24,607 nucleotides of DNA from a virus, in the IMG/VR virus record IMGVR_UViG_3300022225_000005, positions 1-24,607 of that record; one strand, 5' to 3'. Both the position numbers and the translations under genes were made by a program. Below the pieces are notes generated by a model, which saw nothing but the letters and a program-made list of their open reading frames with translations, did no database searches and had not been told where the DNA came from. How positions within the stretch are numbered: the first letter of the stretch is position 1; every line of letters starts with the position of its first letter. This document shows positions 1,283 through 24,607 of this stretch, in pieces.

Positions 1283-1831
1283 TTAACTTAATTCATCTGT
1301 CATTACTAAATCTTTTGCCATTATTTCAGCTAATTCACCATTTCGTACTACCTTTATGTATTCAGTTAATTTGTATTGCTTAATCGTATTATCTTCTAAT
1401 TCAACTTGAACTCTATGTGGTGAGTTTATTTCATTATTATACTTAGTGTTACCCATATCAGCTGTAGACTTTATAATAAGTTGTCCTGACCCAGTCGTTG
1501 CACCGGCGTTATCCACATCGTAGAATCTCCAACCAGGCAATCCAAGTACACCATATAAACTGTTAAGTAGTATCTTTTGTACGTGTTGGCGTTTGTTATA
1601 ATAATTGTATTTGTCGGTATCATTTGCTATACCGTATTTTTTCATTAAACCTTTATACTCAACACGTTTATCGAACCAAATGTTCAATATACCTGGAATA
1701 CAACCTATGTCTTCTGTTTTTATAATATCACCATTATCGTTTAATTTCAACTCATATCGGGTTAAATGTTCCAACATTGATTCACGGTTGTCAAATTCTA
1801 AAATTTTATTATATAACTCTATTTTTATCAT
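1283..1831 (-). CDS. 43: family B DNA polymerase, middle fragment (fingers and motif B)
   Basis: A 182-aa piece of a T4 gp43-like replicative polymerase. After about 40 non-obvious residues, GCIPGILNIWFDKRVEYKG (43-61) matches the T4 segment leading into the fingers, and KILLNSLYGVLG (86-97) is motif B, the dNTP-binding helix. The match continues through GSGQLIIKSTADM. The protein stops before motif C (the DTDS catalytic Asp), which is absent from the window. Its last 45 or so residues (about 137-182) do not look like polymerase. The pattern VELEDNTIKQ, then VVRNGELAEIMAKDL, recalls the block B half of an intein/Hint fold, but the TxxH is missing. The start ATG lies inside the 3' end of the HNH gene (23-nt overlap), so translation may be coupled. 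It cannot polymerise alone and must assemble with the 528-aa fragment and an unseen C-terminal piece. Confidence 0.85.
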   Translation of the reverse strand: MIKIELYNKILEFDNRESMLEHLTRYELKLNDNGDIIKTEDIGCIPGILNIWFDKRVEYKGLMKKYGIANDTDKYNYYNKRQHVQKILLNSLYGVLGLPGWRFYDVDNAGATTGSGQLIIKSTADMGNTKYNNEINSPHRVQVELEDNTIKQYKLTEYIKVVRNGELAEIMAKDLVMTDELS

Positions 1832-2501
1832 AATCTACTACGCTCTTACATAATTCTATAAATTCTCGTTGAGTGTACGCTTGTTTCATCATATTAATTT
1901 TCGTATACACCCATTGTACATTTCCTTTGATATAGCCACGTGATGAATCTATTCTATCAAGAGATGCACTCATATGACCATTTGCGATATTATACCCATC
2001 CCGTGGAATAAAATCTATATCTATACCAGTTAATGCACATTTTTTACCTTGTATTTTATACAGTTCCATTAGATAATGACCATCTACGTTATATTCATAA
2101 CCCCGTTTATGTGCTCTATTTTTTATCTTAGTGATGACTGTAGCTGGTATTTCACCGTGCCCGCGCCAGTTCCCACTACCACTACCAACAACCGTACATT
2201 TTCGGCAACCATTTGTTGTACCATTTAACAATCTATTTATTTTAACTGTTGATATATAACCACATTCACATTCACATTTTATCAAACCGCCATCTTTTAT
2301 TACATCACCTATTACCGTCCATTTTCTAAAAACATCACCATGTTTGATTTTATCATTATATTTAGACACCCGGTTGGGTCTTTGTTTTTGTGCACATGAC
2401 CTACATACAGTCTTATCTAATCGTTTAGCTTCGTAATAACTACTCTCCGTAAACTCACGTGATTTACCACATGACGAACATTTAATTTCATATTGTTTCA
2501 T
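1809..2501 (-). CDS. HNH homing endonuclease inserted in the DNA polymerase gene
   Basis: A 230-aa free-standing endonuclease lying exactly between two polymerase fragments. The N-terminal zinc-ribbon-like pairs are CSSCGK (8-13), CRSC (33-36), CECECG (76-81) and CRKC (99-102). The C-terminal HNH domain spans roughly 150-206: KKCALTGIDI, SASLDRIDSS, GYIKGNVQWVY and N-x-MK. The LDRID Asp-Arg and the NVQWV signature are typical of phage HNH nucleases of the AP2/NUMOD type. By family knowledge it would cut polymerase genes lacking the insertion and spread by repair. The next polymerase fragment starts within its last codons. It begins 39 nt after the upstream fragment's stop, with a TATATTTATA motif in that gap. 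Confidence 0.88.
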   Translation of the reverse strand: MKQYEIKCSSCGKSREFTESSYYEAKRLDKTVCRSCAQKQRPNRVSKYNDKIKHGDVFRKWTVIGDVIKDGGLIKCECECGYISTVKINRLLNGTTNGCRKCTVVGSGSGNWRGHGEIPATVITKIKNRAHKRGYEYNVDGHYLMELYKIQGKKCALTGIDIDFIPRDGYNIANGHMSASLDRIDSSRGYIKGNVQWVYTKINMMKQAYTQREFIELCKSVVDYDKNRVI

Positions 2502-2522
2502 ATTTCATATAATTAGTATGAC

Positions 2523-2532
2523 TATAAATATA
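2523..2532 (-). promoter_or_regulatory. TATATTTATA motif upstream of the HNH gene
   Basis: On the coding strand TATATTTATA lies 21 nt upstream of the HNH start, straddling the 3' end of the polymerase fragment and the gap. The same 10-mer precedes the genes starting at 5236, 19203 and 23004. Here the upstream G-T6 half is not present. Candidate promoter element of mobile genes. Confidence 0.35.
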
Positions 2533-2540
2533 AAAATATT

Positions 2541-4127
2541 TTATTTAGTGTCATTATCATATATAATTTTTCCAACTTTTTGTTCTTTTACAGATTTATA
2601 TAACACATTATTAGCTGATATTGTGACTCTACCACTATCTAATAATTTCCTAACATCATCAGCTGATATTTCTTTGTTATCGTTTGGGCCAACTGCAATT
2701 GATATTGGTTCATTATACTCACCACTCTTAAGTTTCAGAATGTCCCAGTCATGATTATTTATTTTCGCCAATTTTGTTTCAGGTGAAATATTCAATGTGA
2801 TAATAATCATTGGATATAGTGATGTTAAATCCAAATCATATATCCATTCGTATCTACCTGTAATTGGGTCTTTTACATAAGCACCCATTAAATCAATAAC
2901 AACACCCCACTCTTTATCTAATGTTTCTGGAAGTGGTTTTGCCGTTTCAAAATATCCCTGTTCACGGTTAATGCCTATATATGGTATTAGTATTTTACTT
3001 GATTTTGATTTATTTATCTTTAGTGTACCAGTATTTGGTATTTCAGCCAATGAACCCCTTACGTATATACGTGATTCACCCGATATACCCTTTTTGATAA
3101 CCAATTTTGTTTTTGGTTTTTTATTCGGAGCAACTATACCACGTTGTTTTAGATACGTTAATAATGCACCCTCTAAGTATTTAGATGAATATACTATATC
3201 CTCATATGGCACGTGGCCTGCGTGACAAATACCACGTGCTAATTCAATGAACTCTAATTTTTTCTCAAACTTAATAATCAATTTGGTATCTACTAAACTA
3301 TACTCGATAAATTTATCAAGATTAGTTCTAAATAACTCATCCAAGTTACCTTGATGTTCAATTTTACCCTCACCAAGTTCTAATCTAGCAACTGTATCTA
3401 ATCTGTAATTAGGTAGTTCACCAAATGTGAATTTCTTGTACATTACCATGTAGTCTAAACAACTTACACCAGCAATGAACCACCTATCTCGGTAATCTGA
3501 ATAAAACATCTCGCCGATTGGTGATAATCTATTAGCATATACATCACCAAGAACACGTTTTAACCGATTATATATGTATGGTATATCAAAGTAATCAATA
3601 TTCCAACCTGTAACTATATCTGGGTGTATTCCCTCATAAATTTCTAAGAATTTCATGAGTAATTCATGTTCAGTCTGAAATGGTAGTACAATGGCTTCTG
3701 GTGTTGTTCGTTCTTGCATCGTACCATCTTTATTGAGTACCAATACCCAATATTGATCAGTTGCACTATCATGTAAACTTATAGCAGTAATTTCGTTTTC
3801 AGCTGTTTTAACATTAGGTGCACCCGTTTCGGTTTCGACCTCAATATCAAATGGCATTACTACAATACCCGTAGATACCTCATCACTATCGGTGTACATA
3901 TCTACTAATACCCGTGTTGTCTCAGGTACATCGGATTCAAATAAACCCTCTTGTCCTTTTTTAAACTTATATATTTTAGATAACTTGTCACCATACAATG
4001 ATGTATACTGACCATTCTCAGCAGGTTCATATGCATACTTAGTGTATGGCATTGTTATGTAACCCCGTTCGTCATCCCAGACATGTACACGGTTACGTTC
4101 TTTTTGGTAATAGCAATTGCGATACAT
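2541..4127 (-). CDS. 43: family B DNA polymerase, N-terminal fragment (exonuclease and motif A)
   Basis: A 528-aa N-terminal piece of a T4/RB69 gp43-like replicative polymerase. The 3'-5' exonuclease motifs are complete: Exo I in MPFDIEVE (91-98), Exo II in GWNIDYFDIPYIYNR (174-188) and Exo III in YSLVD (276-280). Palm motif A is DLDLTSLYP (431-439), followed by NISPETK as in T4. The frame ends at 528, shortly after SANNVLYKSVK, the T4-equivalent stretch just before the fingers. The terminal dozen or so residues look non-native. The chain resumes in the fragment at 1283-1831 after an intervening HNH gene. Bipartite gp43 enzymes are known in Aeromonas T4-like phages. This one also lacks motif C and the thumb within the window, implying at least three pieces. 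Confidence 0.9.
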   Translation of the reverse strand: MYRNCYYQKERNRVHVWDDERGYITMPYTKYAYEPAENGQYTSLYGDKLSKIYKFKKGQEGLFESDVPETTRVLVDMYTDSDEVSTGIVVMPFDIEVETETGAPNVKTAENEITAISLHDSATDQYWVLVLNKDGTMQERTTPEAIVLPFQTEHELLMKFLEIYEGIHPDIVTGWNIDYFDIPYIYNRLKRVLGDVYANRLSPIGEMFYSDYRDRWFIAGVSCLDYMVMYKKFTFGELPNYRLDTVARLELGEGKIEHQGNLDELFRTNLDKFIEYSLVDTKLIIKFEKKLEFIELARGICHAGHVPYEDIVYSSKYLEGALLTYLKQRGIVAPNKKPKTKLVIKKGISGESRIYVRGSLAEIPNTGTLKINKSKSSKILIPYIGINREQGYFETAKPLPETLDKEWGVVIDLMGAYVKDPITGRYEWIYDLDLTSLYPMIIITLNISPETKLAKINNHDWDILKLKSGEYNEPISIAVGPNDNKEISADDVRKLLDSGRVTISANNVLYKSVKEQKVGKIIYDNDTK

Positions 4128-4168
4128 TTATTCGTTTATTATTATGAATTCACATTTCAGTAAATTCG

Positions 4169-4312
4169 TTATTTCTTTTCATCTACACGTAATACTATTG
4201 GATAATCAACTTTATCTTCAAGAATATCATCAATTACATATACAGCATCAGTCGGTAACCCCATTTCATATGAGGCCTTTTCTGTTAATTTAACACTTGA
4301 TTTTGATTTCAT
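4169..4312 (-). CDS. 47-aa acidic hypothetical protein
   Basis: ATG at 4312 follows the NADAR stop by one nucleotide, and the frame stays open to a TAA at 4169. The product begins MKSKSSVKLTEKAS and ends YPIVLRVDEKK. It is rich in Asp/Glu in the middle (VIDDILEDKVDY). No recognised domain. Tight spacing behind the NADAR gene and the same strand support a real gene. About 40 nt of apparently empty sequence separate it from the polymerase start. Confidence 0.5.
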   Translation of the reverse strand: MKSKSSVKLTEKASYEMGLPTDAVYVIDDILEDKVDYPIVLRVDEKK

Positions 4313-4313
4313 A

Positions 4314-4787
4314 CTATCTATCTCTTAATTGATTCCGTACCTCTGTTAATACGTTTCCTAACCGATTTTCACCTTTCCATTCTGATTTCGGTGTTTTCTT
4401 AGCTTCATTTACACCCATTCCGATGCCCCATATTGAGTCATATGGCGAAGCCTCTACTAATGTAGTTGGGTAGGTTTCCATTAACTCTGTCATCAGTATA
4501 GGATTTTGTTCGAATTTTGCAACGTTACCACGTTTTACAATATCATATGATATTCCATCCCACATAATTGCATCAAAATTTCGTACCGATCTCCCCAATT
4601 TCTTTTGAGAATGAGGTGATGATGTTTCCATAATCTTTTGTGATGTCTCTAAATCACCAAATGTTATTGCTTTTTGGTGCATCATGTATTGTTCAGCACA
4701 GGTGTACGTAACACCATCAACTGTGAATTCTGTTGGATACCATTGTGAAAAAGGGCCGTTCCAAAAGAATGTGTATTCTTCGTTCAT
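4314..4787 (-). CDS. NADAR (YbiA-like) domain protein
   Basis: A 157-aa single-domain protein matching the NADAR/YbiA family along its whole length. It has FSQWYPTEFTVDG near the N-terminus, then the hallmark Y-T-C-A-E-Q-Y-M-M-H-Q-K-A, GRSVRNFD, W-D, EASPYDSIWGIG and W-K-G-E-NRLGNVL. Family knowledge: YbiA-type members hydrolyse N-glycosidic bonds of early riboflavin-pathway intermediates. Other NADAR proteins remove ADP-ribose from guanine in nucleic acid, and the domain occurs in NAD/ADP-ribose-linked phage and defence contexts. In a phage genome a role in reversing host ADP-ribosylation or in NAD metabolism is plausible, but the sequence cannot distinguish these. Its start lies 2 nt after the stop of the upstream small gene and its stop is 1 nt from the next start. 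Confidence 0.88.
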   Translation of the reverse strand: MNEEYTFFWNGPFSQWYPTEFTVDGVTYTCAEQYMMHQKAITFGDLETSQKIMETSSPHSQKKLGRSVRNFDAIMWDGISYDIVKRGNVAKFEQNPILMTELMETYPTTLVEASPYDSIWGIGMGVNEAKKTPKSEWKGENRLGNVLTEVRNQLRDR

Positions 4788-4788
4788 A

Positions 4789-5115
4789 TTACTTTACCCA
4801 TTCATTAAATGCCATTTCATATGCTTCTACCAATGTAGTAGTTGAACCTTCATTTATGATTTTCCATGCCGTTTGTTCTACCTCATTTCGTAGACCATAT
4901 GCGTTAGCTTCGGCAAGTATTTCTAGTATTTGTTCTTTTTCGTCCATTGTTTTATGTTTTTTAGTTTCTTCGGTATGAGTTCGTCCTGTATTTGCACATG
5001 ACTGACAATTTGTCTTAGTTTTATTTGCATATTGCCAATTTCTTTCACGAGTGTAGTTAATCACTTTCCCGCAAGTTGGACAATTTCTCTTCCATTTCTT
5101 TAATTCGTTTTTCAT
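4789..5115 (-). CDS. 108-aa ORF: endonuclease zinc-ribbon/NUMOD3 remnant joined to a small conserved-looking phage protein
   Basis: The frame from ATG 5115 has two unrelated parts. Residues 1-56 contain WKRNCPTCGKVINYTRERNW and CQSCANTGRTHTEETKKHK, the N-terminal zinc ribbon plus NUMOD3-like motif of phage HNH/GIY-YIG mobile endonucleases, with no catalytic domain after it. Residues 57-108 begin at an internal Met (ATG 4947) and run MDEKEQILEILAEANAYGL to EAYEMAFNEWVK. This looks like a self-standing small helical protein of the sort found in T4-like phages. I infer a homing-endonuclease insertion that decayed by deletion and left its 5' end fused in frame to the next gene. Which start is used is unknown: 4947 would give the native 52-aa protein. 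An upstream in-frame ATG at 5208 is less likely because it runs through the 59-aa ORF in another frame. Confidence 0.6.
   Translation of the reverse strand: MKNELKKWKRNCPTCGKVINYTRERNWQYANKTKTNCQSCANTGRTHTEETKKHKTMDEKEQILEILAEANAYGLRNEVEQTAWKIINEGSTTTLVEAYEMAFNEWVK
4948..5115 (-). pseudogene. truncated homing-endonuclease N-terminus (zinc ribbon plus NUMOD3-like)
   Basis: This marks the mobile-element part of the fused frame: two CxxC pairs (CPTC and CQSC) and a G-R-T-H-T-E-E-T-K-K-H motif. No HNH or GIY-YIG domain follows, so it cannot be a functional nuclease. Its 5' end overlaps the 3' end of the 59-aa ORF by 59 nt in a different frame, which is consistent with insertion into that gene. 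Confidence 0.5.
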
Positions 5116-16117: not shown

Positions 16118-16795
16118 CTATTCCAACGCACATGAAGCCCCACTACATGCAAGTTCGGCTGATAACTCAGTTGTATCTTCTGCTTCCACTACTTTGGTTA
16201 AGTCGATACTTTTAAGTTGTGAGTATAATTCTTCGTATTCTTTTTTAGTAATGTCTTCAAACGGCATTTGTTTATACGTACCACCATCGAAAGGAATTAC
16301 GGATATACCGTTATAATGTCGTTTTTCTCGCCACATCCAATCACGTACCAAATCCCATTCATTATCTTTTACCGAAACTGTACATGATACATTATGGTGA
16401 TTTTGTCCTTTTCGGTATCCATTATGTATCCAATTTTCGGATATAAACTTAACACGTTCCAATAAATCTATCGGTGATTCGTGTCTTGTTATCGCTCCCT
16501 TTGGTGCTTGTTGTGGTACTGATATTACCGATTGTTGTTCTGGTCTGAAAAACTCATCCTCAATTAATTTTGGATGTCTTTTCTTTAGATATGGATAAAT
16601 TGATTCATCTTTACCAATTCTCATTCGTCTTATATAGTAGTTATTGTGCCACGCATGTATTCCACTACTTGTACCCAACACTAAACTTGTTGTATTATGT
16701 GAAAGAGTCCCATTTGACATTTGATACATCGGTTTATTTTCTACCTCAATGTCTACTGTGAACGATTGTGTTATTTCTTTTTTCTTGAATTTCAT
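16118..16795 (-). CDS. nrdJ: class II ribonucleotide reductase, C-terminal fragment with C-intein
   Basis: A 225-aa protein. Residues 1-34 are a C-terminal split intein (ending GTLSHN). From Thr35 the RNR resumes with TTSLVLGTSSGIHAWHNNYY, the conserved continuation of KPAG in the large subunit. It ends ELACSGASCALE, a C-x4-C pair like the re-reducing thiols at the C-terminus of adenosylcobalamin RTPR (Cys731/Cys736 in Lactobacillus leichmannii). Its ATG overlaps the stop of the N-terminal gene (ATGA), so both halves should be made in similar amounts. Trans-splicing would give an enzyme of about 626 residues, somewhat shorter than the 739-residue L. leichmannii enzyme. Confidence 0.9.
   Translation of the reverse strand: MKFKKKEITQSFTVDIEVENKPMYQMSNGTLSHNTTSLVLGTSSGIHAWHNNYYIRRMRIGKDESIYPYLKKRHPKLIEDEFFRPEQQSVISVPQQAPKGAITRHESPIDLLERVKFISENWIHNGYRKGQNHHNVSCTVSVKDNEWDLVRDWMWREKRHYNGISVIPFDGGTYKQMPFEDITKKEYEELYSQLKSIDLTKVVEAEDTTELSAELACSGASCALE
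16694..16795 (-). mobile_element. NrdJ split intein, C-terminal half (34 aa)
   Basis: Residues 1-34 of the downstream RNR gene: block F-like FTVDIEVEN, then MSNGTLSHN. The terminal His-Asn is the block G cleavage signature and the +1 residue is Thr. Length fits canonical split-intein C-halves (about 35-47 residues). Confidence 0.85.
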
Positions 16796-18465
16796 TGTAT
16801 CTGTTCCTTTAACTTATTTTTTAGTTCATCTTTATTAGAATGCCAATCATCATCCTCTGTTATATCAATTGCTTGTTTCCAAGTGCCGTCTGACATCATA
16901 AATTTATGATGTGGTGTACATTCAATTATACTACCATCTTCCATTGTAAATTTAACTGTTTCTTCTGTACCATTGATGAATAATTTTGTAATGGAGTTTT
17001 CGTTTCCGTTATCATCATACACTTTAATATCAGTATTCACATCATACCATTCTCGGTACTCATTGAGTTTATCATTAAGTTCTATACCATTTTTCTTAAA
17101 AATATCATATAAACTCATATCACCATCAGTTGTTCGTATTTTAGTAGACGGTATTTGACACCCTGCAGGTTTTACTGATGTTGTTCTTGCCGCTGGGTTT
17201 ATACCAATTATCTCAGCAACACGTTTGTTTTCATCATTTACAACGTGAGTTGCTGAACTATAATCTAATAATAAATTACCCTTTGATGCAATACCTGTCA
17301 TACTAACACCTAGTAGGGCATCCTTTTCAGTAGTTCTAGCCCATACATCACGTAGATAATGAAAATCAGTATAACCACCTTGTAATGTACCTATGAAAGC
17401 GGCTGCCTTTGCACGTTGATTAAAATCTTCTTGACCATTCACACTACTCATGTTAATCTCGGTAAGATTACAAAATTGATTAGATCTTAATGAAATTTCA
17501 GCACAAGGATTTGTACCCCAATCCATATCATTTGTAAAGTATATTCCAGGTTCACCTGCTTTACTAGCTTTCATCCGCTCCCACAAATGATGGAATTTAG
17601 ATTTAGTGATTTTATGTCTAAGTATTACAGCACTGTTATTAGCTCTACCACGTTGTGGATTTCTAATGTACCAGTCACCAATCTTACATGATAACATAGC
17701 AGAATCATTTAGGTTAAACAACGCTATCATTGCCGCCCTACGAATACCACCTGCTAAAACTGCATCAGCGATATGACACATAATGTCATGTGCTTCAAGT
17801 GATGATAAACTTGAGTTATCTTCCTTTTCACGTAACATACCCTCTAATTTAGTAAGAGCCAGTCTAAGTGGTTCAGGACCAGGTGCTCTACCACCTGCCG
17901 TGATTAATAATGCACCCTTTTCTCGGATGTCACTATAATCAAATTGAATATGTGAATTGATTTTACCTGTATATGATTTGAATAGTACCTTAACAGCATC
18001 AGCCCAACCTATAATACTATCTTGTATCACATATTTTCGTTTTCTATCATAATTAGGTTTATGAATTTCAGGCAGGTTTTCAATATGGTGTGTTTGTACA
18101 CTATAACCCACTCCTGTGCCACCTAGTAGAAGAAACATAGTTTCCGAAAAACTGTATATTGAATCTATTGGTAGGAATGCACAATTATAAATTCTTGAAT
18201 TGTTTATCTCAATAGGTCGTCCACCAAACTGCATTGACCTCATTGAGGGTAATACTCTTTTAGTTAATACAAATTTATTATATACATCTTCGATTTCACC
18301 CGCTATCATTGGGTATTTTCTCACATGCATGTCTTTATTTCGGGTCACAATTTCTAACCAATTCTCCCTACGATTTTCCTTCTCTAAATGTCTAGCGTAT
18401 TTGGTGTGTACCACAATATCACTAAGTATTCTTTTATCCAAATCTAATTGATTCGTTGTGTTCAT
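16792..18465 (-). CDS. nrdJ: class II ribonucleotide reductase, N-terminal fragment with N-intein
   Basis: A 557-aa protein; residues 1-435 are RNR and 436-557 are a split-intein N-half. It is adenosylcobalamin-type (monomeric RTPR-like). It has YNCAFLP (Cys95), NPCAEISLRSNQFCNL (Cys321 as thiyl-radical candidate, Glu323, Cys332 as redox partner of Cys95), and the 11-residue Cys-Cys spacing matches C408/C419 of L. leichmannii RTPR. GGTGVGYSVQ fits the specificity region. The RNR part stops at TTSVKPAG, and Cys436 begins the intein. It reduces ribonucleotides for phage DNA synthesis, independent of oxygen but needing host B12. A GIY-YIG endonuclease gene lies just upstream and endonuclease fragments lie downstream. 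Confidence 0.92.
   Translation of the reverse strand: MNTTNQLDLDKRILSDIVVHTKYARHLEKENRRENWLEIVTRNKDMHVRKYPMIAGEIEDVYNKFVLTKRVLPSMRSMQFGGRPIEINNSRIYNCAFLPIDSIYSFSETMFLLLGGTGVGYSVQTHHIENLPEIHKPNYDRKRKYVIQDSIIGWADAVKVLFKSYTGKINSHIQFDYSDIREKGALLITAGGRAPGPEPLRLALTKLEGMLREKEDNSSLSSLEAHDIMCHIADAVLAGGIRRAAMIALFNLNDSAMLSCKIGDWYIRNPQRGRANNSAVILRHKITKSKFHHLWERMKASKAGEPGIYFTNDMDWGTNPCAEISLRSNQFCNLTEINMSSVNGQEDFNQRAKAAAFIGTLQGGYTDFHYLRDVWARTTEKDALLGVSMTGIASKGNLLLDYSSATHVVNDENKRVAEIIGINPAARTTSVKPAGCQIPSTKIRTTDGDMSLYDIFKKNGIELNDKLNEYREWYDVNTDIKVYDDNGNENSITKLFINGTEETVKFTMEDGSIIECTPHHKFMMSDGTWKQAIDITEDDDWHSNKDELKNKLKEQIQ
16795..17160 (-). mobile_element. NrdJ split intein, N-terminal half (122 aa)
   Basis: It starts CQIPSTKIRTTDGDMSLYDI (block A, nucleophile Cys). 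Block B is IIECTPHHKFM (C-T-P-H-H gives the TxxH-type histidine), followed by W-K-Q-A-I-D-I-T-E-D-D-D. Both A and B are on this half, so the break is at the canonical position before block F. The insertion point is KPAG|T in a highly conserved RNR loop. No endonuclease domain or gene lies between the halves. Confidence 0.88.
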
Positions 18466-21302: not shown

Positions 21303-21761
21303 TTATCTCATTGTGTCTAAATATTTTTTGTGCAGTAACTCTTTCTGTACGAGTTTCCCACTTGATGCCTCTTTTGATGATAGAATACCGGCCGGTGTGT
21401 TACCATCATATATCTCAATAAACCCAGTATTTGTATCCATTTTACATGGAAACGTAATACCATCGGGGCCAAATCTGTTTTTCATAATGTGAGCTCTCGC
21501 GGTATTGTTAACCTTATCAGCTGTTTTTCTACTCCAACTCATAATAAAGTCGGCATTCATTACTTTTGCATATGAATCTGCTATTTTATCAGCCTCGATT
21601 ACCTCTGAATCAATTGCCGAATTATGAGTATATACATCATTTGCGTAAAACATATGGGTATCTTCTACTGTTATATCTACTGTTTCTCGTTCACCGATTA
21701 ACTCTATGGATACAATTTCATCCATTATAAAGTCTTTTGGGGTTAAGTTATGTTGTTTCAT
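21303..21761 (-). CDS. 41: gp41-type replicative helicase, C-terminal fragment with C-intein
   Basis: A 152-aa protein. Residues 1-47 form a C-terminal split intein ending YANDVYTHN. Ser48 begins the helicase continuation SAIDSEVIEADKIADSYAK, MNADFIMSWSRK, with ARAHIMKNRFGPDG (the F-G-P-D-G segment of T4 gp41) and the polypeptide C-terminus. Its ATG lies inside the last codons of the Vsr-like endonuclease (14-nt overlap). By family knowledge the helicase is hexameric, travels 5'-3' on the lagging strand and works with primase. Without trans-splicing this piece lacks the P-loop and Walker B. Confidence 0.9.
   Translation of the reverse strand: MKQHNLTPKDFIMDEIVSIELIGERETVDITVEDTHMFYANDVYTHNSAIDSEVIEADKIADSYAKVMNADFIMSWSRKTADKVNNTARAHIMKNRFGPDGITFPCKMDTNTGFIEIYDGNTPAGILSSKEASSGKLVQKELLHKKYLDTMR
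21621..21761 (-). mobile_element. helicase split intein 2, C-terminal half (47 aa)
   Basis: MKQHNLTPKDFIMDEIVSIE, then a block F-like ETVDITVEDTHMFYAND and terminal THN before Ser48. Length and pattern closely resemble the gp41-8/gp41-1 C-halves known from marine metagenomes. Confidence 0.88.
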
Positions 21762-23004
21762 TTATAAAATTTATGCATATGTTTATAATTTGTTCTTTGT
21801 CTTTTTTGTAATCTGATTCCCAGATTATTAATACTTCGTAACCATGTGATTCCAACCAATCTATTCGTTTTTTATCATTGTCCCACAACTCTTCTGCTAT
21901 TACATGATTATTTGGATGTGTTAATATTTCATTCTTTTTGTATTGTTTAGGATTTGCGTGCCAAAAATCACCGTTAAATTCTATTATTTTATTACCACAT
22001 TTGAAGTCTACTTGAATATATGAATCAATATTAGTTACAAACTTACATTCTTCGTTTAACTCTGCAAATTTAATTTTTTGTTGGAGTTCATCGGATAATG
22101 CAACTGATACGTTCCAGAATAATTCTTGTGATATTTTACTATATACCTCTGGTTTGGAATTTAACCACGGACCCATCCGTTTAATATATTCATTACGTGC
22201 TAGTTTGCTACCATACCGTTCAACAAAATATGGATATGTGTTTATGTACGATTGACGTTTACAAAATAATTCATATCGTTCTTTACCAATTTCATCACCA
22301 TATCTATTAACAAATGAATCCAATGAAGTATTATTTTTTAATTTATGACACATTTTAGTTCCGATAACTTCACCGAATTCATCAATGTATCGTTGTAATG
22401 ATACCATATAGCTCTGACGTTTATTCCTAATATTCCATCGTTTATACCCATCTTCTATACCATGTCGTTCCTGATATTCTTCTAAGGTTCTGCCATTTTT
22501 CCATCTTTTATTCTTGAAGTTTTCCCTTTGTGTGTTTAGTTTTTTTGTTAATGTTTCCTGCCATTTTTGTTTACCTAGTAACTCGCCGTATTTTTCTACA
22601 AAACGTTGCTCTGAAAAGCTAACCTTTGATGTACATAACTCTTGCCATTTTTGTTTCCCGTATTTCTTAACATATGTATTTTTACTCACCGAGTTCTTAA
22701 ATGTATTAATACGTTCTGTGTGTAATTGTGTGCCCACTACATCACCATACCTACCAATATAACTATTTAACGTTATACTATCCCGTTTAAATTGTTTACT
22801 ATTATGTATCAGCGTTACCCAGTCATCACCTACATTATATTTAATTAATGATGTAATCTGTAATGCCTTGTTTTGAATTTCACGTTTAGTAAATTGTATT
22901 ACAATTTTATTTAGTTGCTCTACGATATTATCCGTTATCTTTTCAAATTCATTAAAAGGTTTTATTCTTAAAATATGTTCCGCGTTTTTATAATATAATT
23001 CCAT
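21748..23004 (-). CDS. Vsr-like (EDxHD) homing endonuclease between the halves of split intein 2
   Basis: A 418-aa protein. Residues 80-290 contain repeated units of the type RFVEKYGELLGKQKWQE (repeated F-x-x-x-Y-G-x-x-x-G-x-x-x-W/Y), probably DNA-reading modules. The C-terminal 110 residues form a Vsr-like nuclease: YIQVDFKCGNKIIEFNGDFW-HA, with Asp333, Glu342, Asp346 and His349 as the E-D-x-H-D-type active site, then LWDNDKKRIDWLESHGYEV and LIIWESDY. This is the endonuclease family described for fractured genes (I-Bth0305I-like). It sits exactly between the two halves of the helicase's second split intein and its 3' end overlaps the downstream piece. It likely cleaves uninterrupted helicase genes. 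Confidence 0.9.
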   Translation of the reverse strand: MELYYKNAEHILRIKPFNEFEKITDNIVEQLNKIVIQFTKREIQNKALQITSLIKYNVGDDWVTLIHNSKQFKRDSITLNSYIGRYGDVVGTQLHTERINTFKNSVSKNTYVKKYGKQKWQELCTSKVSFSEQRFVEKYGELLGKQKWQETLTKKLNTQRENFKNKRWKNGRTLEEYQERHGIEDGYKRWNIRNKRQSYMVSLQRYIDEFGEVIGTKMCHKLKNNTSLDSFVNRYGDEIGKERYELFCKRQSYINTYPYFVERYGSKLARNEYIKRMGPWLNSKPEVYSKISQELFWNVSVALSDELQQKIKFAELNEECKFVTNIDSYIQVDFKCGNKIIEFNGDFWHANPKQYKKNEILTHPNNHVIAEELWDNDKKRIDWLESHGYEVLIIWESDYKKDKEQIINICINFINETT

Positions 23005-23017
23005 AGTATCTCTTTAT

Positions 23018-23044
23018 TATAAATATAATATTTTTATAAAAAAC
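23018..23044 (-). promoter_or_regulatory. GTTTTTT-N10-TATATTTATA element before the Vsr-like endonuclease
   Basis: On the coding strand GTTTTTT, ATAAAAATAT, TATATTTATA, ending 13 nt before ATG 23004. The same arrangement precedes the 59-aa ORF (5242-5268). It would let the endonuclease be expressed independently of the helicase. Confidence 0.5.
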
Positions 23045-23067
23045 GGAACGAATACACAAACTTTTTA

Positions 23068-24183
23068 TTATTTTTTTGTAAATAATTTGTCGCCAACTTT
23101 TAATCCACTTTCCAATGATTTAAGTTTTCCGTATTTAACAGGAAATTCATGACGTAATGAACATTTTATTGTTTTTCCGCTTTTTAATTTAATTTCGTAC
23201 ACCGGTTGTTCTTCAATTGGAAATACATGGGTAACTTCCTTATAACCGTTATGGGTTAATATTTCATCACCGTTTTTAATTTTACCTATCTCAACTTTAC
23301 CACGTTTTGTATCAACTAATTCAGAAATTTCACAACATCTATTTGTCTGGCTGGCAGTCCAAACTGGTACACCTATCTCACCACTTAATCCACGTAATTC
23401 TATATACACACCACCTTGTTCTTGGTATGTTGAATCTGATTTGTTTGTGTGTGATAACAATAAATCAGCATAATCAATAATTACCAAATCTGGTTTATTA
23501 CCAGTCATTGTTAATTTCTCGATATGTTGTTGTATGCTTCTCGTTGAAATTCCTTTTGGTGGAAAATACTTAATCTGTAAATGACCCTTTAGTGATGATA
23601 TCTTATCTTGAACAATTTGAGCCTTATCTGGATCCTTTAATTCATTCGATGGTATTTGTGTAAACACGGTATCATATCTCATACCAACATAATGTTCGGA
23701 TAATTCTAATGAATAATGAGCCACATTCAAACCTTGTAATACAGCATATGCACCAATTGCCGTTAAAATCCATGTATTATGTGATAATATTCCATTTGCA
23801 TAAAAACAATGAACTTTATCAACCATCAAATCATATAATATTTTCTCTTTACCTTCATGAATTTTTCTAATTTTAGTAGTACCAGTTTCAGTTTCAATAA
23901 TATCAGTCTCAATATTAATATCTCTGACCTCCGTCCATTCGCCATTTACTTTTAACTTATGTTCCCACCCACATTCAAGTGTTCTGTTATTAGTAAAATA
24001 TAATCTAATGGATGTCTGTTTTATAGTTCTACACACTGATGGTATTTTGTGATACCCATATGGAGTCTTAACCCTAACATCGTGTATTAAATCTTGAAAA
24101 TGGTTTTCTACGTGTGGTATTTCGTTTAACTCAAAAAATTTATCAACTTTTATTGTTTCCCGTTTTTTACGAGTCTGTATCAT
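23068..24183 (-). CDS. 41: gp41-type helicase, middle fragment flanked by two intein halves
   Basis: A 371-aa protein of three parts: C-half of intein 1 (1-136, ending GILSHN), helicase core (137-282) and N-half of intein 2 (283-371). The core starts TWILTAIGAYAVLQGLNVAH, where Thr137 completes the Walker A GVGKT once joined to the upstream piece. It continues YSLELSEHYVGMRYD (the S-x-E-M motif of DnaB/gp41), Walker B DLVIIDYADLLL (232-243) and WTASQTNR (275-282). To enter a working helicase it must undergo two trans-splicing reactions, one at each end. The start ATG overlaps the 3' end of the endonuclease stub by 17 nt. Confidence 0.92.
   Translation of the reverse strand: MIQTRKKRETIKVDKFFELNEIPHVENHFQDLIHDVRVKTPYGYHKIPSVCRTIKQTSIRLYFTNNRTLECGWEHKLKVNGEWTEVRDINIETDIIETETGTTKIRKIHEGKEKILYDLMVDKVHCFYANGILSHNTWILTAIGAYAVLQGLNVAHYSLELSEHYVGMRYDTVFTQIPSNELKDPDKAQIVQDKISSLKGHLQIKYFPPKGISTRSIQQHIEKLTMTGNKPDLVIIDYADLLLSHTNKSDSTYQEQGGVYIELRGLSGEIGVPVWTASQTNRCCEISELVDTKRGKVEIGKIKNGDEILTHNGYKEVTHVFPIEEQPVYEIKLKSGKTIKCSLRHEFPVKYGKLKSLESGLKVGDKLFTKK
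23071..23337 (-). mobile_element. helicase split intein 2, N-terminal half (89 aa)
   Basis: It starts at the first Cys of NRCCEIS (Cys283). The 24-residue distance from this Cys to the Gly-Asp of IKNGD equals that in gp41-8. PVYEIKLKSGKTIKCSLRHE is block B with the S-x-x-H histidine, and it ends LKVGDKLFTKK. It is near the gp41-8 N-half length of 88, with the same SGLKVGD end. Insertion point SQTNR|S. Confidence 0.9.
23776..24183 (-). mobile_element. helicase split intein 1, large C-terminal half (136 aa) carrying blocks B, F and G
   Basis: VKTPYGYHKIPSV and RTLECGWEHKLKVNGEW (block B, with the E-H histidine) lie on this half, followed by KEKILYDLMVDKVHCFYANG and ILSHN. Block order and length resemble the C-fragments of atypically split inteins such as AceL-TerL. 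The break therefore lies between blocks A and B rather than near block F. The +1 residue is Thr137, the Walker A Thr. Confidence 0.85.
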
Positions 24184-24364
24184 TTAAGTATTCTTTTATA
24201 ACATTCATAACATTTTTTTTATCATCGGTATATTCATTCTCCCATATAACCAATACATCATATCCAATTTCCTTTAGATAATTAATTTTTTGTAAATCAT
24301 ATTCTCTAATTTCATATACCGGTTTACGTATAGTCGGGTGTATATCATTATCATCAAACACCAC
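24167..24364 (-). pseudogene. C-terminal stub of a Vsr-like homing endonuclease between halves of split intein 1
   Basis: A 65-codon frame with only a GTG near its start, directly preceded by a stop. Residues 20-62 (YDLQKINYLKEIGYDVLVIW, then ENEYTDDKKNVMNVIKEYL) align with the last 45 or so residues of the 418-aa Vsr-like enzyme (KKRIDWLESHGYEVLIIWES and following). The catalytic E-x-x-x-D-x-x-H region is missing, so it should be inactive. It overlaps the N-half gene by 11 nt and the next gene by 17 nt. It marks a once-complete endonuclease inserted in the intein and then deleted. Confidence 0.75.
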
Positions 24365-24607
24365 TTAGTTCTATCAATTTTCTAGCCTCACTTGCTGTTA
24401 GTTCAACATCATAGCCTAATTGAATTTTATCCCATGGTTTACACCATATAACAAATCCGTTTTTCAATTCGAATCCAATTTCATCGTATTCAATATCAAT
24501 TTCAGTATCACCCCCAACGCATTTACCTACACCACTTGGTGCAACCACAACTGCGAGTTCACCACCAGATAACCCACCATCCATTAAATCGGTGATAACA
24601 TCCCACG
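24354..24607 (-). CDS. 41: gp41-type helicase, N-terminal fragment ending in N-intein, partial at right edge
   Basis: The frame is open to the window edge. The visible part reads WDVITDLMDGGLSGGELAVV, then VAPSGVGK, the first half of the Walker A loop of a DnaB/gp41 helicase (compare T4 GGVNVGKS). Cys at 24519-24521 starts the intein and the chain stops 54 codons later. The N-terminal domain of the helicase lies outside the window. An apparent internal ATG at 24584 is not the start. The piece cannot bind ATP until spliced to the fragment at 23068-24183. Confidence 0.9.
   Translation of the reverse strand, partial: WDVITDLMDGGLSGGELAVVVAPSGVGKCVGGDTEIDIEYDEIGFELKNGFVIWCKPWDKIQLGYDVELTASEARKLIELSGV
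24357..24521 (-). mobile_element. helicase split intein 1, short N-terminal half (55 aa)
   Basis: It begins CVGGDTEIDIEYDEIG, a block A of the C-V-x-G-D-T type seen in AceL-TerL-like inteins, and ends EARKLIELSGV. There is no block B. The middle (GFVIWCKPWDKIQLGYDVEL) has no clear counterpart and may be an extra insertion, since known atypical N-halves are shorter. Insertion point GVGK|T in Walker A. Confidence 0.82.

What the first reader, a model, noticed from the sequence alone, without database searches (positions are those of the whole stretch)
21303..24607. Replicative helicase in three genes joined by two different split inteins
Seen: exteins ...APSGVGK | TWILTAIG...SQTNR | SAIDSEVIEADK..., each junction flanked by an intein N-half (Cys start) and C-half (His-Asn end) on separate ORFs. 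The middle protein carries an intein half at each end and so must splice twice. Known: gp41 helicases fractured by split inteins and Vsr-like nucleases were described from marine metagenomes (gp41-1, gp41-8). Inference: a functional hexameric helicase forms only after ordered, orthogonal trans-splicing, giving a post-translational control point on replication. Two mechanistically different split inteins in one short gene is notable.
Basis: partly seen in the sequence, partly recalled or inferred. Interest (0 to 1): 0.9.

Follow-up and report, generated by a model that had tools for sequence, protein, structure and literature searches.

The report
Phage helicase broken by two inteins
In this phage the gene for the DNA-unwinding motor is broken into three pieces, each break carrying the two halves of a self-splicing protein element that should stitch the product back together, and closely related phages suggest that the breaks are the work of selfish mobile genes rather than a built-in switch.

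Summary
On the minus strand a gp41/DnaB-type helicase is encoded in three ORFs joined by two different split inteins: J1 inside Walker A (GK|T), J2 at SQTNR|S. The window is a whole 24.6-kb contig and cuts off most of piece 1; a 99.9%-identical contig holds it entire. J2 is split canonically (89+47 aa; nearest solved intein gp41-1), J1 near its N-end (55+136 aa; nearest VidaL). An endonuclease gene sits at J2, a 65-aa remnant at J1.
The control-point reading is not supported. A sister phage (96% protein identity) has an uninterrupted helicase. J2 carries about 20 bp of donor-like flank. J2 cassettes move between phages as units; intein halves are under purifying selection; endonucleases decay. 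Near-identical contigs have lost the J2 endonuclease through a 10-bp repeat, yet the intein stays split. Among sampled relatives J2 is split in 48 clusters and contiguous in none; 16 of the 48 include an allele with a decayed or lost endonuclease; J1 exists split and contiguous; eight clusters are fractured twice.
Fractured genes are known. I found no report of a gene broken twice, but the key 2009 paper was not held. No splicing was measured.

The parts
24522..24605 (-). Helicase N-extein, last 28 residues, up to the Walker A lysine (cut by the contig end; whole in L002 3775-4386)
24357..24521 (-). J1 N-intein half, 55 aa, Cys1 (59 aa in L007, L008, L010)
24167..24364 (-). 65-aa ORF, remnant of the J1 endonuclease (301, 284 and 301 aa in L007, L008, L010); its 3' end overlaps the start of piece 2 by 17 nt
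23776..24183 (-). J1 C-intein half, 136 aa, ends SHN; nearest solved intein VidaL
23338..23775 (-). Middle extein, 146 aa, starts at the Walker A threonine, ends SQTNR
23071..23337 (-). J2 N-intein half, 89 aa, Cys1; nearest solved intein gp41-1
21748..23004 (-). Free-standing J2 endonuclease ORF, 418 aa, DUF559-like C-terminal domain just over the curated cut-off, phrog_22677 (unknown function); its 3' end contains the start codon of piece 3
21621..21761 (-). J2 C-intein half, 47 aa, ends THN
21306..21620 (-). Helicase C-extein, 105 aa, starts SAIDSEV

Best explanation
A phage replicative helicase gene has been invaded at two conserved sites by two independent inteins, each broken by a free-standing endonuclease gene. 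Three proteins are made. The J1 halves on pieces 1 and 2, and the J2 halves on pieces 2 and 3, should associate and splice in trans, giving the ordinary uninterrupted helicase (inferred, not shown). The cassette (N-half, endonuclease, C-half) spreads by homing into intact alleles with co-conversion of flanking sequence (inferred from sequence signatures, seen for J2). The endonucleases are later lost by deletion, as has almost fully happened at J1 here and at J2 in sibling contigs, but the inteins remain split, perhaps because the start of the downstream piece lies in the end of the endonuclease gene. The arrangement is a by-product of selfish DNA that has become needed to build the helicase, not an evolved switch.
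For: Junctions and pieces. The spliced product equals a natural protein: L009, 455 aa, 96% identical across both junctions. HINT fold of the contiguous J1 of L042: one search handed back (mean pLDDT 65.7), Foldseek best VidaL E 5.7e-6, VIA Z 12.3 to an archaeal mini-intein, VidaL Z 8.4, all 50 rows shown being inteins or intein-like. J1 is one intein broken at one place: halves from four phages align end to end with contiguous forms of 188 and 191 aa. Constraint, window against L007: dN/dS N1 0.098, C1 0.056, N2 0.100, C2 0.022, middle extein 0.117; J1 endonuclease remnant 0.394 and 214 codons of the J2 endonuclease 0.309. Mobility: L141/L142 extein dS 0.71-0.77 but J2 halves identical and endonuclease 0.058; L227/L228 extein dS 0.67-2.4, halves identical. 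Co-conversion-like flank: window type against L009 22 mismatches in the 60-bp bin at J2, 0-11 in the other 22 bins; in the 20 bp from -17 to +2 of J2 it differs from L009 at 10 and from L007 at 0 positions. Endonuclease loss with the split kept: L002 and L004, and L003 as far as it reaches, lack 1,270 bp (1,260 bp between two 10-bp repeats plus one repeat copy) and keep the endonuclease's 3' end; of 48 J2-bearing clusters 16 hold an allele with an insert under 800 bp, 34 one of full length, 2 both, none a contiguous J2.
Against: No splicing, cleavage or homing was observed. dS is saturated in several comparisons, including the C-extein of window against L007. Downstream of J2 (+3 to +22) the window type differs from L009 and from L007 alike at 7 positions, and an intein-free relative (L047) is closest with 2, so the donor is not identified and the tract may be short. 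J1 flanks show no clear co-conversion. Loci were fetched with helicase and intein queries and capped lists, so counts are not population frequencies. The tree of J1 C-halves (24 rows) does not resolve whether J1 was split once or repeatedly, or whether a contiguous form arose by re-fusion. In 6 of 16 endonuclease-decayed J2 alleles the 40-nt leader is no closer to full-length alleles than many shuffles.
Confidence: 0.86

Rival explanations
1. The two trans-splicing steps are a selected control point: helicase activity is timed or gated by assembly of three proteins.
For: J1 splits Walker A between K and T, so precursors should lack ATPase. Conditional splicing of a P-loop intein in the replicative helicase DnaB of a mycobacterium is in print (PMC6195587, passages).
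Against: A sister phage 96% identical has an uninterrupted gene; 51 of 118 clusters hold phages with neither intein, one of them also the window type; the signatures are those of mobile elements. Nothing seen in the sequence indicates order or regulation.
Confidence: 0.06
2. The pieces assemble without covalent splicing, like the T4-family split proteins that work as complexes.
For: Split NrdA and gp43 that function as separate chains are described for T4-related phages (PMC2988022, passages).
Against: The junctions aligned keep Cys1, block-B His, penultimate His, terminal Asn and a Ser/Thr +1, with low dN/dS in the intein halves; leaving an intein half inside the P-loop would be hard to tolerate (inference).
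Confidence: 0.04
3. The helicase is decaying and the fragments are not used.
For: The J1 endonuclease beside it is a remnant.
Against: Where dS is not saturated, dN/dS of exteins and intein halves is 0.02-0.12 against L007; the same two-break structure recurs in seven further clusters.
Confidence: 0.03
4. Assembly artefact: fragments of different alleles joined.
For: Metagenome contigs only.
Against: Three contigs under three IMG/VR dataset numbers (which may be samples of one site) agree with the window over J1 and, apart from the deleted endonuclease, over J2, L003 only up to its end; seven further clusters have two breaks.
Confidence: 0.01

Closest known systems
Fractured genes with split inteins and free-standing endonucleases (Dassa et al. 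2009, known to me from memory and from citations; text not held)
   Same: Conserved replication enzyme broken by a split intein with an endonuclease gene between the pieces, in phage contigs; further published cases are AceL NrdHF (PMC7891396, passages) and MIJ3 PolB (PMC6892783, passages)
   Different: Here one gene is broken twice by two different inteins, so the middle protein carries an IntC and an IntN; endonuclease-plus, endonuclease-minus and intein-free alleles occur in closely related phages
gp41-1 / gp41-8 canonical split inteins
   Same: J2: IntN 89 aa, IntC 47 aa; gp41-1 (6qaz) is the nearest solved relative, E 9.3e-22. That gp41-8 sits at the same SQ.NR|S site is recalled, not tested
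   Different: J2 is a divergent relative; no gp41-8 sequence was compared
VidaL / AceL-TerL / CAT atypically split inteins
   Same: J1: split near the N-end so that block B lies on IntC; VidaL is the best hit by profile (E 1.1e-10) and by Foldseek
   Different: IntN is 55-74 aa in the 12 forms and 45 aa in L154, against 15-37 aa reported for natural atypical inteins (PMC13014065, passages); contiguous homologues exist at the same site
Two contiguous inteins in M. smegmatis DnaB
   Same: Two inteins in one replicative helicase, one in the P-loop with the P-loop hydroxyl residue as splicing nucleophile (PMC6195587, passages)
   Different: Those are contiguous, cis-splicing, and one is class 3; here both are split and class-1-like
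[quoted passage not shown]
   Same: Neighbouring inteins in one helicase gene, one after the Walker A lysine, studied for homing; double homing into an empty allele was inefficient (PMC10643990, passages)
   Different: Contiguous inteins with internal endonuclease domains

Membership tests
Fractured gene (split intein plus endonuclease) | Enzyme gene broken at an intein site with complementary halves on separate ORFs | tested here: met
   both junctions; uninterrupted homologue L009 shows the exact joints
Fractured gene (split intein plus endonuclease) | Free-standing endonuclease gene between the pieces | tested here: met
   J2: 418-aa ORF 23004-21748, DUF559 21.3 bits, cut-off 20.6, phrog_22677 6.9e-33, unknown function. 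J1: only a 65-aa remnant in the window (DUF559 21.3 bits; homing endonuclease phrog_3339 4.4e-5); the full J1 ORFs of L007 and L008 match nuclease families only below the cut-offs
Fractured gene (split intein plus endonuclease) | Endonuclease active and site-specific | not testable with these tools
   sequence only; the flank at J2 is indirect support
Canonical split intein (gp41-1/gp41-8 type), J2 | IntN with blocks A and B, IntC with blocks F and G, broken between them | tested here: met
   89 and 47 aa; gp41-1 E 9.3e-22. 89 aa is somewhat under the 100-130 aa that PMC13014065 gives for canonical IntN (passages)
Canonical split intein (gp41-1/gp41-8 type), J2 | Identity with gp41-8 in particular | not tested
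   no gp41-8 sequence came from a call; the shared site is recalled
Atypical split intein (VidaL/AceL type), J1 | Split before block B so that IntC carries blocks B, F and G | tested here: met
   hhalign places the block-B region of J2 IntN on J1 IntC, E 2.2e-5, probability 76%, 45 columns; VidaL best by profile and Foldseek
Atypical split intein (VidaL/AceL type), J1 | Short IntN of 15-37 aa (range in PMC13014065) | tested here: not met
   IntN 55 aa in the window, 59 in L007/L008/L010, 59-74 in eight others, 45 in L154: broken like the family, but with a longer N-half
Class 1 intein (both) | Cys1, block-B His, penultimate His, terminal Asn, +1 Cys/Ser/Thr | tested here: met
Functional split intein (both) | Protein trans-splicing | not testable with these tools
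   inferred from conserved residues and dN/dS
Conserved regulatory element | Retained in close relatives | tested here: not met
   L009, 96% identical, has neither intein

The most novel reading that the evidence does not exclude
Breaking a gene by an endonuclease inside an intein is close to a one-way ratchet: the endonuclease brings the translation start of the downstream piece inside its own 3' end, so when it is later lost its last codons tend to stay and the intein stays split. Repeated at a second site this leaves an essential helicase that can only be built from three chains. The middle chain (IntC-extein-IntN) has the layout that engineers use to cyclise proteins (recalled), so the two inteins must remain unable to pair with each other, which two different split positions help to guarantee. 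Closely related phages then display the steps by which orphan split inteins could arise.
Probability: 0.5. Interest if true: 0.75.

Novelty: new variant of a known kind. Interest (0 to 1): 0.66.

Why it matters
How split inteins arise and why they persist rests, as far as I know, mostly on hypotheses from scattered examples. Here one gene family offers intact, contiguous, split-with-endonuclease, endonuclease-remnant and endonuclease-free alleles, two of these states in phages about 99.9% identical over the shared sequence, so the steps can be tested with natural constructs. The helicase is also a natural case of one protein assembled from three chains by two split inteins with different split positions, of direct use for multi-part protein ligation. 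A GenBank T4-like phage with a once-fractured gene 41 (ESh36, ON528746) may offer a culturable relative.

Tried and rejected
Hypothesis dropped: I noted that J1 never occurs without J2 and thought of hitch-hiking on the J2 endonuclease. A more sensitive J1 search and searches found 12 clusters with a J1-site insert and an empty J2 (11 split, 1 contiguous), so this is wrong.

Tree of J1 C-halves (24 rows): contiguous and split forms intermix, 4 changes by parsimony, one origin not excluded; 116 (split) and 124 (contiguous) of 500 shuffles are as low. Inconclusive.

Model of the middle protein: pLDDT 63.8, pTM 0.45, the J2 half mostly below 60; it cannot say whether J1 IntC and J2 IntN might pair within one chain. 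Not used.

The first classification was wrong because tblastn ran on into intein sequence; one search used the three exteins apart, profiles. In one search, 7 of 265 loci gave no match to the helicase core; 2 of 258 with a match (L170, L246) were left out of the clustering because the core is incomplete. In the tally undetermined members were ignored where another member of the cluster was determined; by this the contiguous J1-site insert of L223 is not counted (its cluster mate L244 is empty there). One cluster (window type and L009) counts twice. L154 is counted as twice split: its J1 reads stop, three codons, a second stop, then a start; a sequencing error is not excluded. In some searches the start codons taken for L154 and L265 are wrong (stops follow), so their leaders say nothing. 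In one search the closest full-length alleles to L002 and L247 are near-identical siblings, and shuffles keep only base composition.

The genome search over the own record found one copy only; it is a fragment, so an intact second copy in the genome is not excluded.

In one search Z values of 7-8 are common background by the tool's own note.

Paper searches. No listing showed a gene fractured twice by split inteins; the key paper (Dassa 2009) is not held, so priority is not established. All papers cited were seen as passages only.
Full report
What is there. The window is a complete 24,607-bp virus record. On its minus strand a DnaB/gp41-type helicase is encoded in three ORFs. Piece 1 is cut by the contig end and keeps 28 extein residues; contig L002, which matches the window at 1,534 of 1,536 and 2,164 of 2,165 aligned bases, holds it whole (259 aa). 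Piece 1 ends in a 55-aa intein N-half; piece 2 (371 aa) has a 136-aa C-half, a 146-aa extein and an 89-aa N-half; piece 3 (152 aa) has a 47-aa C-half and a 105-aa extein. The first junction (J1) falls between lysine and threonine of the Walker A motif, the second (J2) after SQTNR. Removing the intein halves gives a 455-aa protein that exists uninterrupted in contig L009, 96% identical, with the same residues at both joints.

The inteins. J2 is a canonical split intein: its N-half profile (9 sequences) finds gp41-1 first among solved structures (E 9.3e-22). J1 is different: a profile of its C-half and two contiguous relatives finds VidaL first (E 1.1e-10) and gp41-1 second (1.1e-8). The contiguous relative at the same site in L042 (188 aa) was modelled (mean pLDDT 65.7); a low-confidence loop (model residues 48-60) lies just before the place where the split forms are broken (about residue 63 by the alignment). 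Foldseek ranks VidaL first (5.7e-6); VIA gives Z 12.3 to an archaeal mini-intein and 8.4 to VidaL, and all 50 rows shown are inteins or intein-like. Split halves of four phages align end to end with the contiguous forms of L042 and L133. Profile comparison puts the block-B region of the J2 N-half on the J1 C-half (E 2.2e-5, probability 76%), so the two inteins are broken on opposite sides of block B. The J1 N-half (55-74 aa in the 12 forms; 45 aa in L154) is longer than the 15-37 aa reported for natural atypical inteins (PMC13014065, passages). Both inteins have the class 1 residues.

The endonucleases. Between pieces 2 and 3 is a 418-aa ORF with a DUF559-type C-terminal domain (21.3 bits, cut-off 20.6; phrog_22677, unknown function, 6.9e-33). 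Between pieces 1 and 2 is a 65-aa ORF that is the tail of a 284-301 aa ORF intact in L007, L008 and L010; those of L007 and L008 reach nuclease families only below the cut-offs. In the window both tails overlap the start codon of the next piece. That they relate to Vsr nucleases is recalled.

Alleles in closely related phages. L002 and L004, and L003 as far as it reaches, are nearly identical to the window (2 mismatches in 1,536 bp each; 1, 1 and 0 in 2,165, 3,015 and 126 bp) but lack most of the J2 endonuclease: 1,270 bp are missing, namely the 1,260 bp between two copies of a 10-bp repeat and one copy; the last codons of the endonuclease remain in front of piece 3. In L002 piece 2 ends in a few new residues and the intein is still split. 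L009 has neither intein. Mismatches between the window type and L009 number 22 in the 60-bp bin at J2 and 0-11 in the other 22 bins. In the 20 bp from -17 to +2 of J2 the window type differs from L009 at 10 positions and from the J2-bearing L007 at none, L008 at 1, L011 at 5, L010 at 6, although the encoded residues are the same. In the next 20 bp it differs from L009 and L007 alike at 7, and least from an intein-free relative (L047, 2). A short co-conversion tract from a homing event is the simplest reading; the donor is not identified. J1 shows no such peak.

Census. 265 loci (redundant; from six scans of IMG/VR, two of them capped at 80 loci, plus the window) were examined; 258 held the helicase core and 256 of these were clustered at 93% nucleotide identity into 118 clusters. 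States J1/J2, one cluster counted twice: empty/empty 51, empty/split 31, split/empty 11, split/split 8, contiguous/split 8, contiguous/empty 1, and 9 with an undetermined side. J2 is split in 48 clusters and contiguous in none. 16 of the 48 hold an allele with an insert under 800 bp (endonuclease decayed or gone), 34 one of full length, 2 both. J1-site inserts are split in 19 and contiguous in 11; of the 11, five match the J1 profile and six are a different, longer in-frame insert. In 10 of 16 decayed J2 alleles the 40 nt before the start codon of piece 3 resemble those of endonuclease-bearing alleles more than nearly all shuffles (3 or fewer of 500 as high); in 6 they do not (42 to 416 of 500), one of these (L154) with a misplaced start. 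J1 endonuclease loss is seen in the window type, in L161 and in L154. The loci were sought with these queries, so the numbers are not frequencies in nature.

Selection and movement. Window against L007: dN/dS 0.098 (J1 N-half), 0.056 (J1 C-half), 0.100 (J2 N-half), 0.022 (J2 C-half), 0.117 (middle extein), 0.394 (J1 endonuclease remnant, 64 codons) and 0.309 (214 codons of the J2 endonuclease); the C-extein is saturated. Over the 16 pairs run the intein halves stay at or below 0.28 where dS is finite and above zero; intact endonucleases are also constrained (L007/L010: 0.17 and 0.24); the J2 remnant of L008 against L007 stands at 0.79. In L141/L142 the exteins differ at dS 0.71-0.77 while the J2 halves are identical and the endonuclease differs at 0.058; in L227/L228 the exteins differ at 0.67-2.4 and the halves are identical. 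The J2 cassette thus moves as a unit between diverged phages.

How it works. Shown: the anatomy, the exact joints, the intact, contiguous, split and endonuclease-free alleles, purifying selection on the halves, transfer of J2 as a unit. Inferred: trans-splicing at both joints, homing by the endonucleases, lack of helicase activity before splicing. The best reading is two independent selfish elements in one gene, each broken by its endonuclease and then partly or wholly losing it while the protein remains in pieces. This fits remarks in print on split inteins as constructive neutral evolution (PMC10643990, passages).

Known and new. Fractured genes with split inteins and intervening endonucleases are known (PMC7891396 and PMC6892783, passages, both citing Dassa 2009, which is not held). 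Two contiguous inteins in one replicative helicase are known (PMC6195587, passages). Nine paper searches listed no gene broken twice by split inteins. Among 50,697 GenBank phage records 1,470 match the middle protein, none over 80% of its length, none matches the J1 C-half, and 10 match the J2 N-half at under 60% identity. One of these, Shigella phage ESh36, is a T4 relative whose gene 41 is fractured once, at another site, and whose relative ESh31 has the gene whole.

Verdict. Observation confirmed; interpretation partly supported; a new variant of a known kind, with an unusually complete series of natural intermediates.

Noticed in passing
L266 (ON528746.1, Shigella phage ESh36, record marked UNVERIFIED) 1870-4850: T4-like phage with gene 41 fractured once: N-piece ending MSDIAE|CLDKSTV, a 332-aa ORF of unassigned family between, C-piece ...GILTKN|SAGLPATADF (penultimate Lys, not His). 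ESh31 has MSDIAESAGL uninterrupted; of 599 matching phage records only ESh36 itself covers 80% or more of the fractured locus.
   Followed up: partly
window 16118-18465, minus strand: Ribonucleotide reductase is also split by an intein, by eye (...VKPAG|CQIPST / ...LSHN|TTSLVLG); Pfam sees only the N-half and below its cut-off. The two ORFs overlap by 4 nt with no endonuclease between them. L007 and L008 carry a further RNR intein half at LLLGG|CFDP, by eye.
   Followed up: no
L002 926-2452 and L009 1371-4119: RecA/UvsX beside the helicase, by eye: at GDPW|TTSGG L002 has a contiguous intein-like insert (no Pfam intein match) while the 97%-identical L009 has a split one plus a second break with an endonuclease-like ORF. 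L008 3896 carries a C-half at the RecA P-loop (Pfam intein below cut-off).
   Followed up: no
window 1283-4127, minus strand: Family B DNA polymerase in two ORFs with an HNH/endonuclease VII-like ORF (1809-2501) between them; no intein domain listed for these ORFs in Pfam or PHROGs.
   Followed up: partly
L207, L208, L218, L250, L260, L263, J1 site: Other phages carry a different, longer contiguous insert (699-1107 bp, ending THN) at the same Walker A site.
   Followed up: partly
L247 and L249: A second pair of close relatives (dS 0.02-0.06 in two exteins) with the J2 endonuclease reduced (insert 745 bp) in one and full length (1682 bp) in the other.
   Followed up: partly
L128 (same contig as L194), start of piece 3: An AGGAG stretch seven bases before the start of piece 3 lies inside the last codons of the endonuclease gene, a possible reason why those codons are kept.
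   Followed up: no
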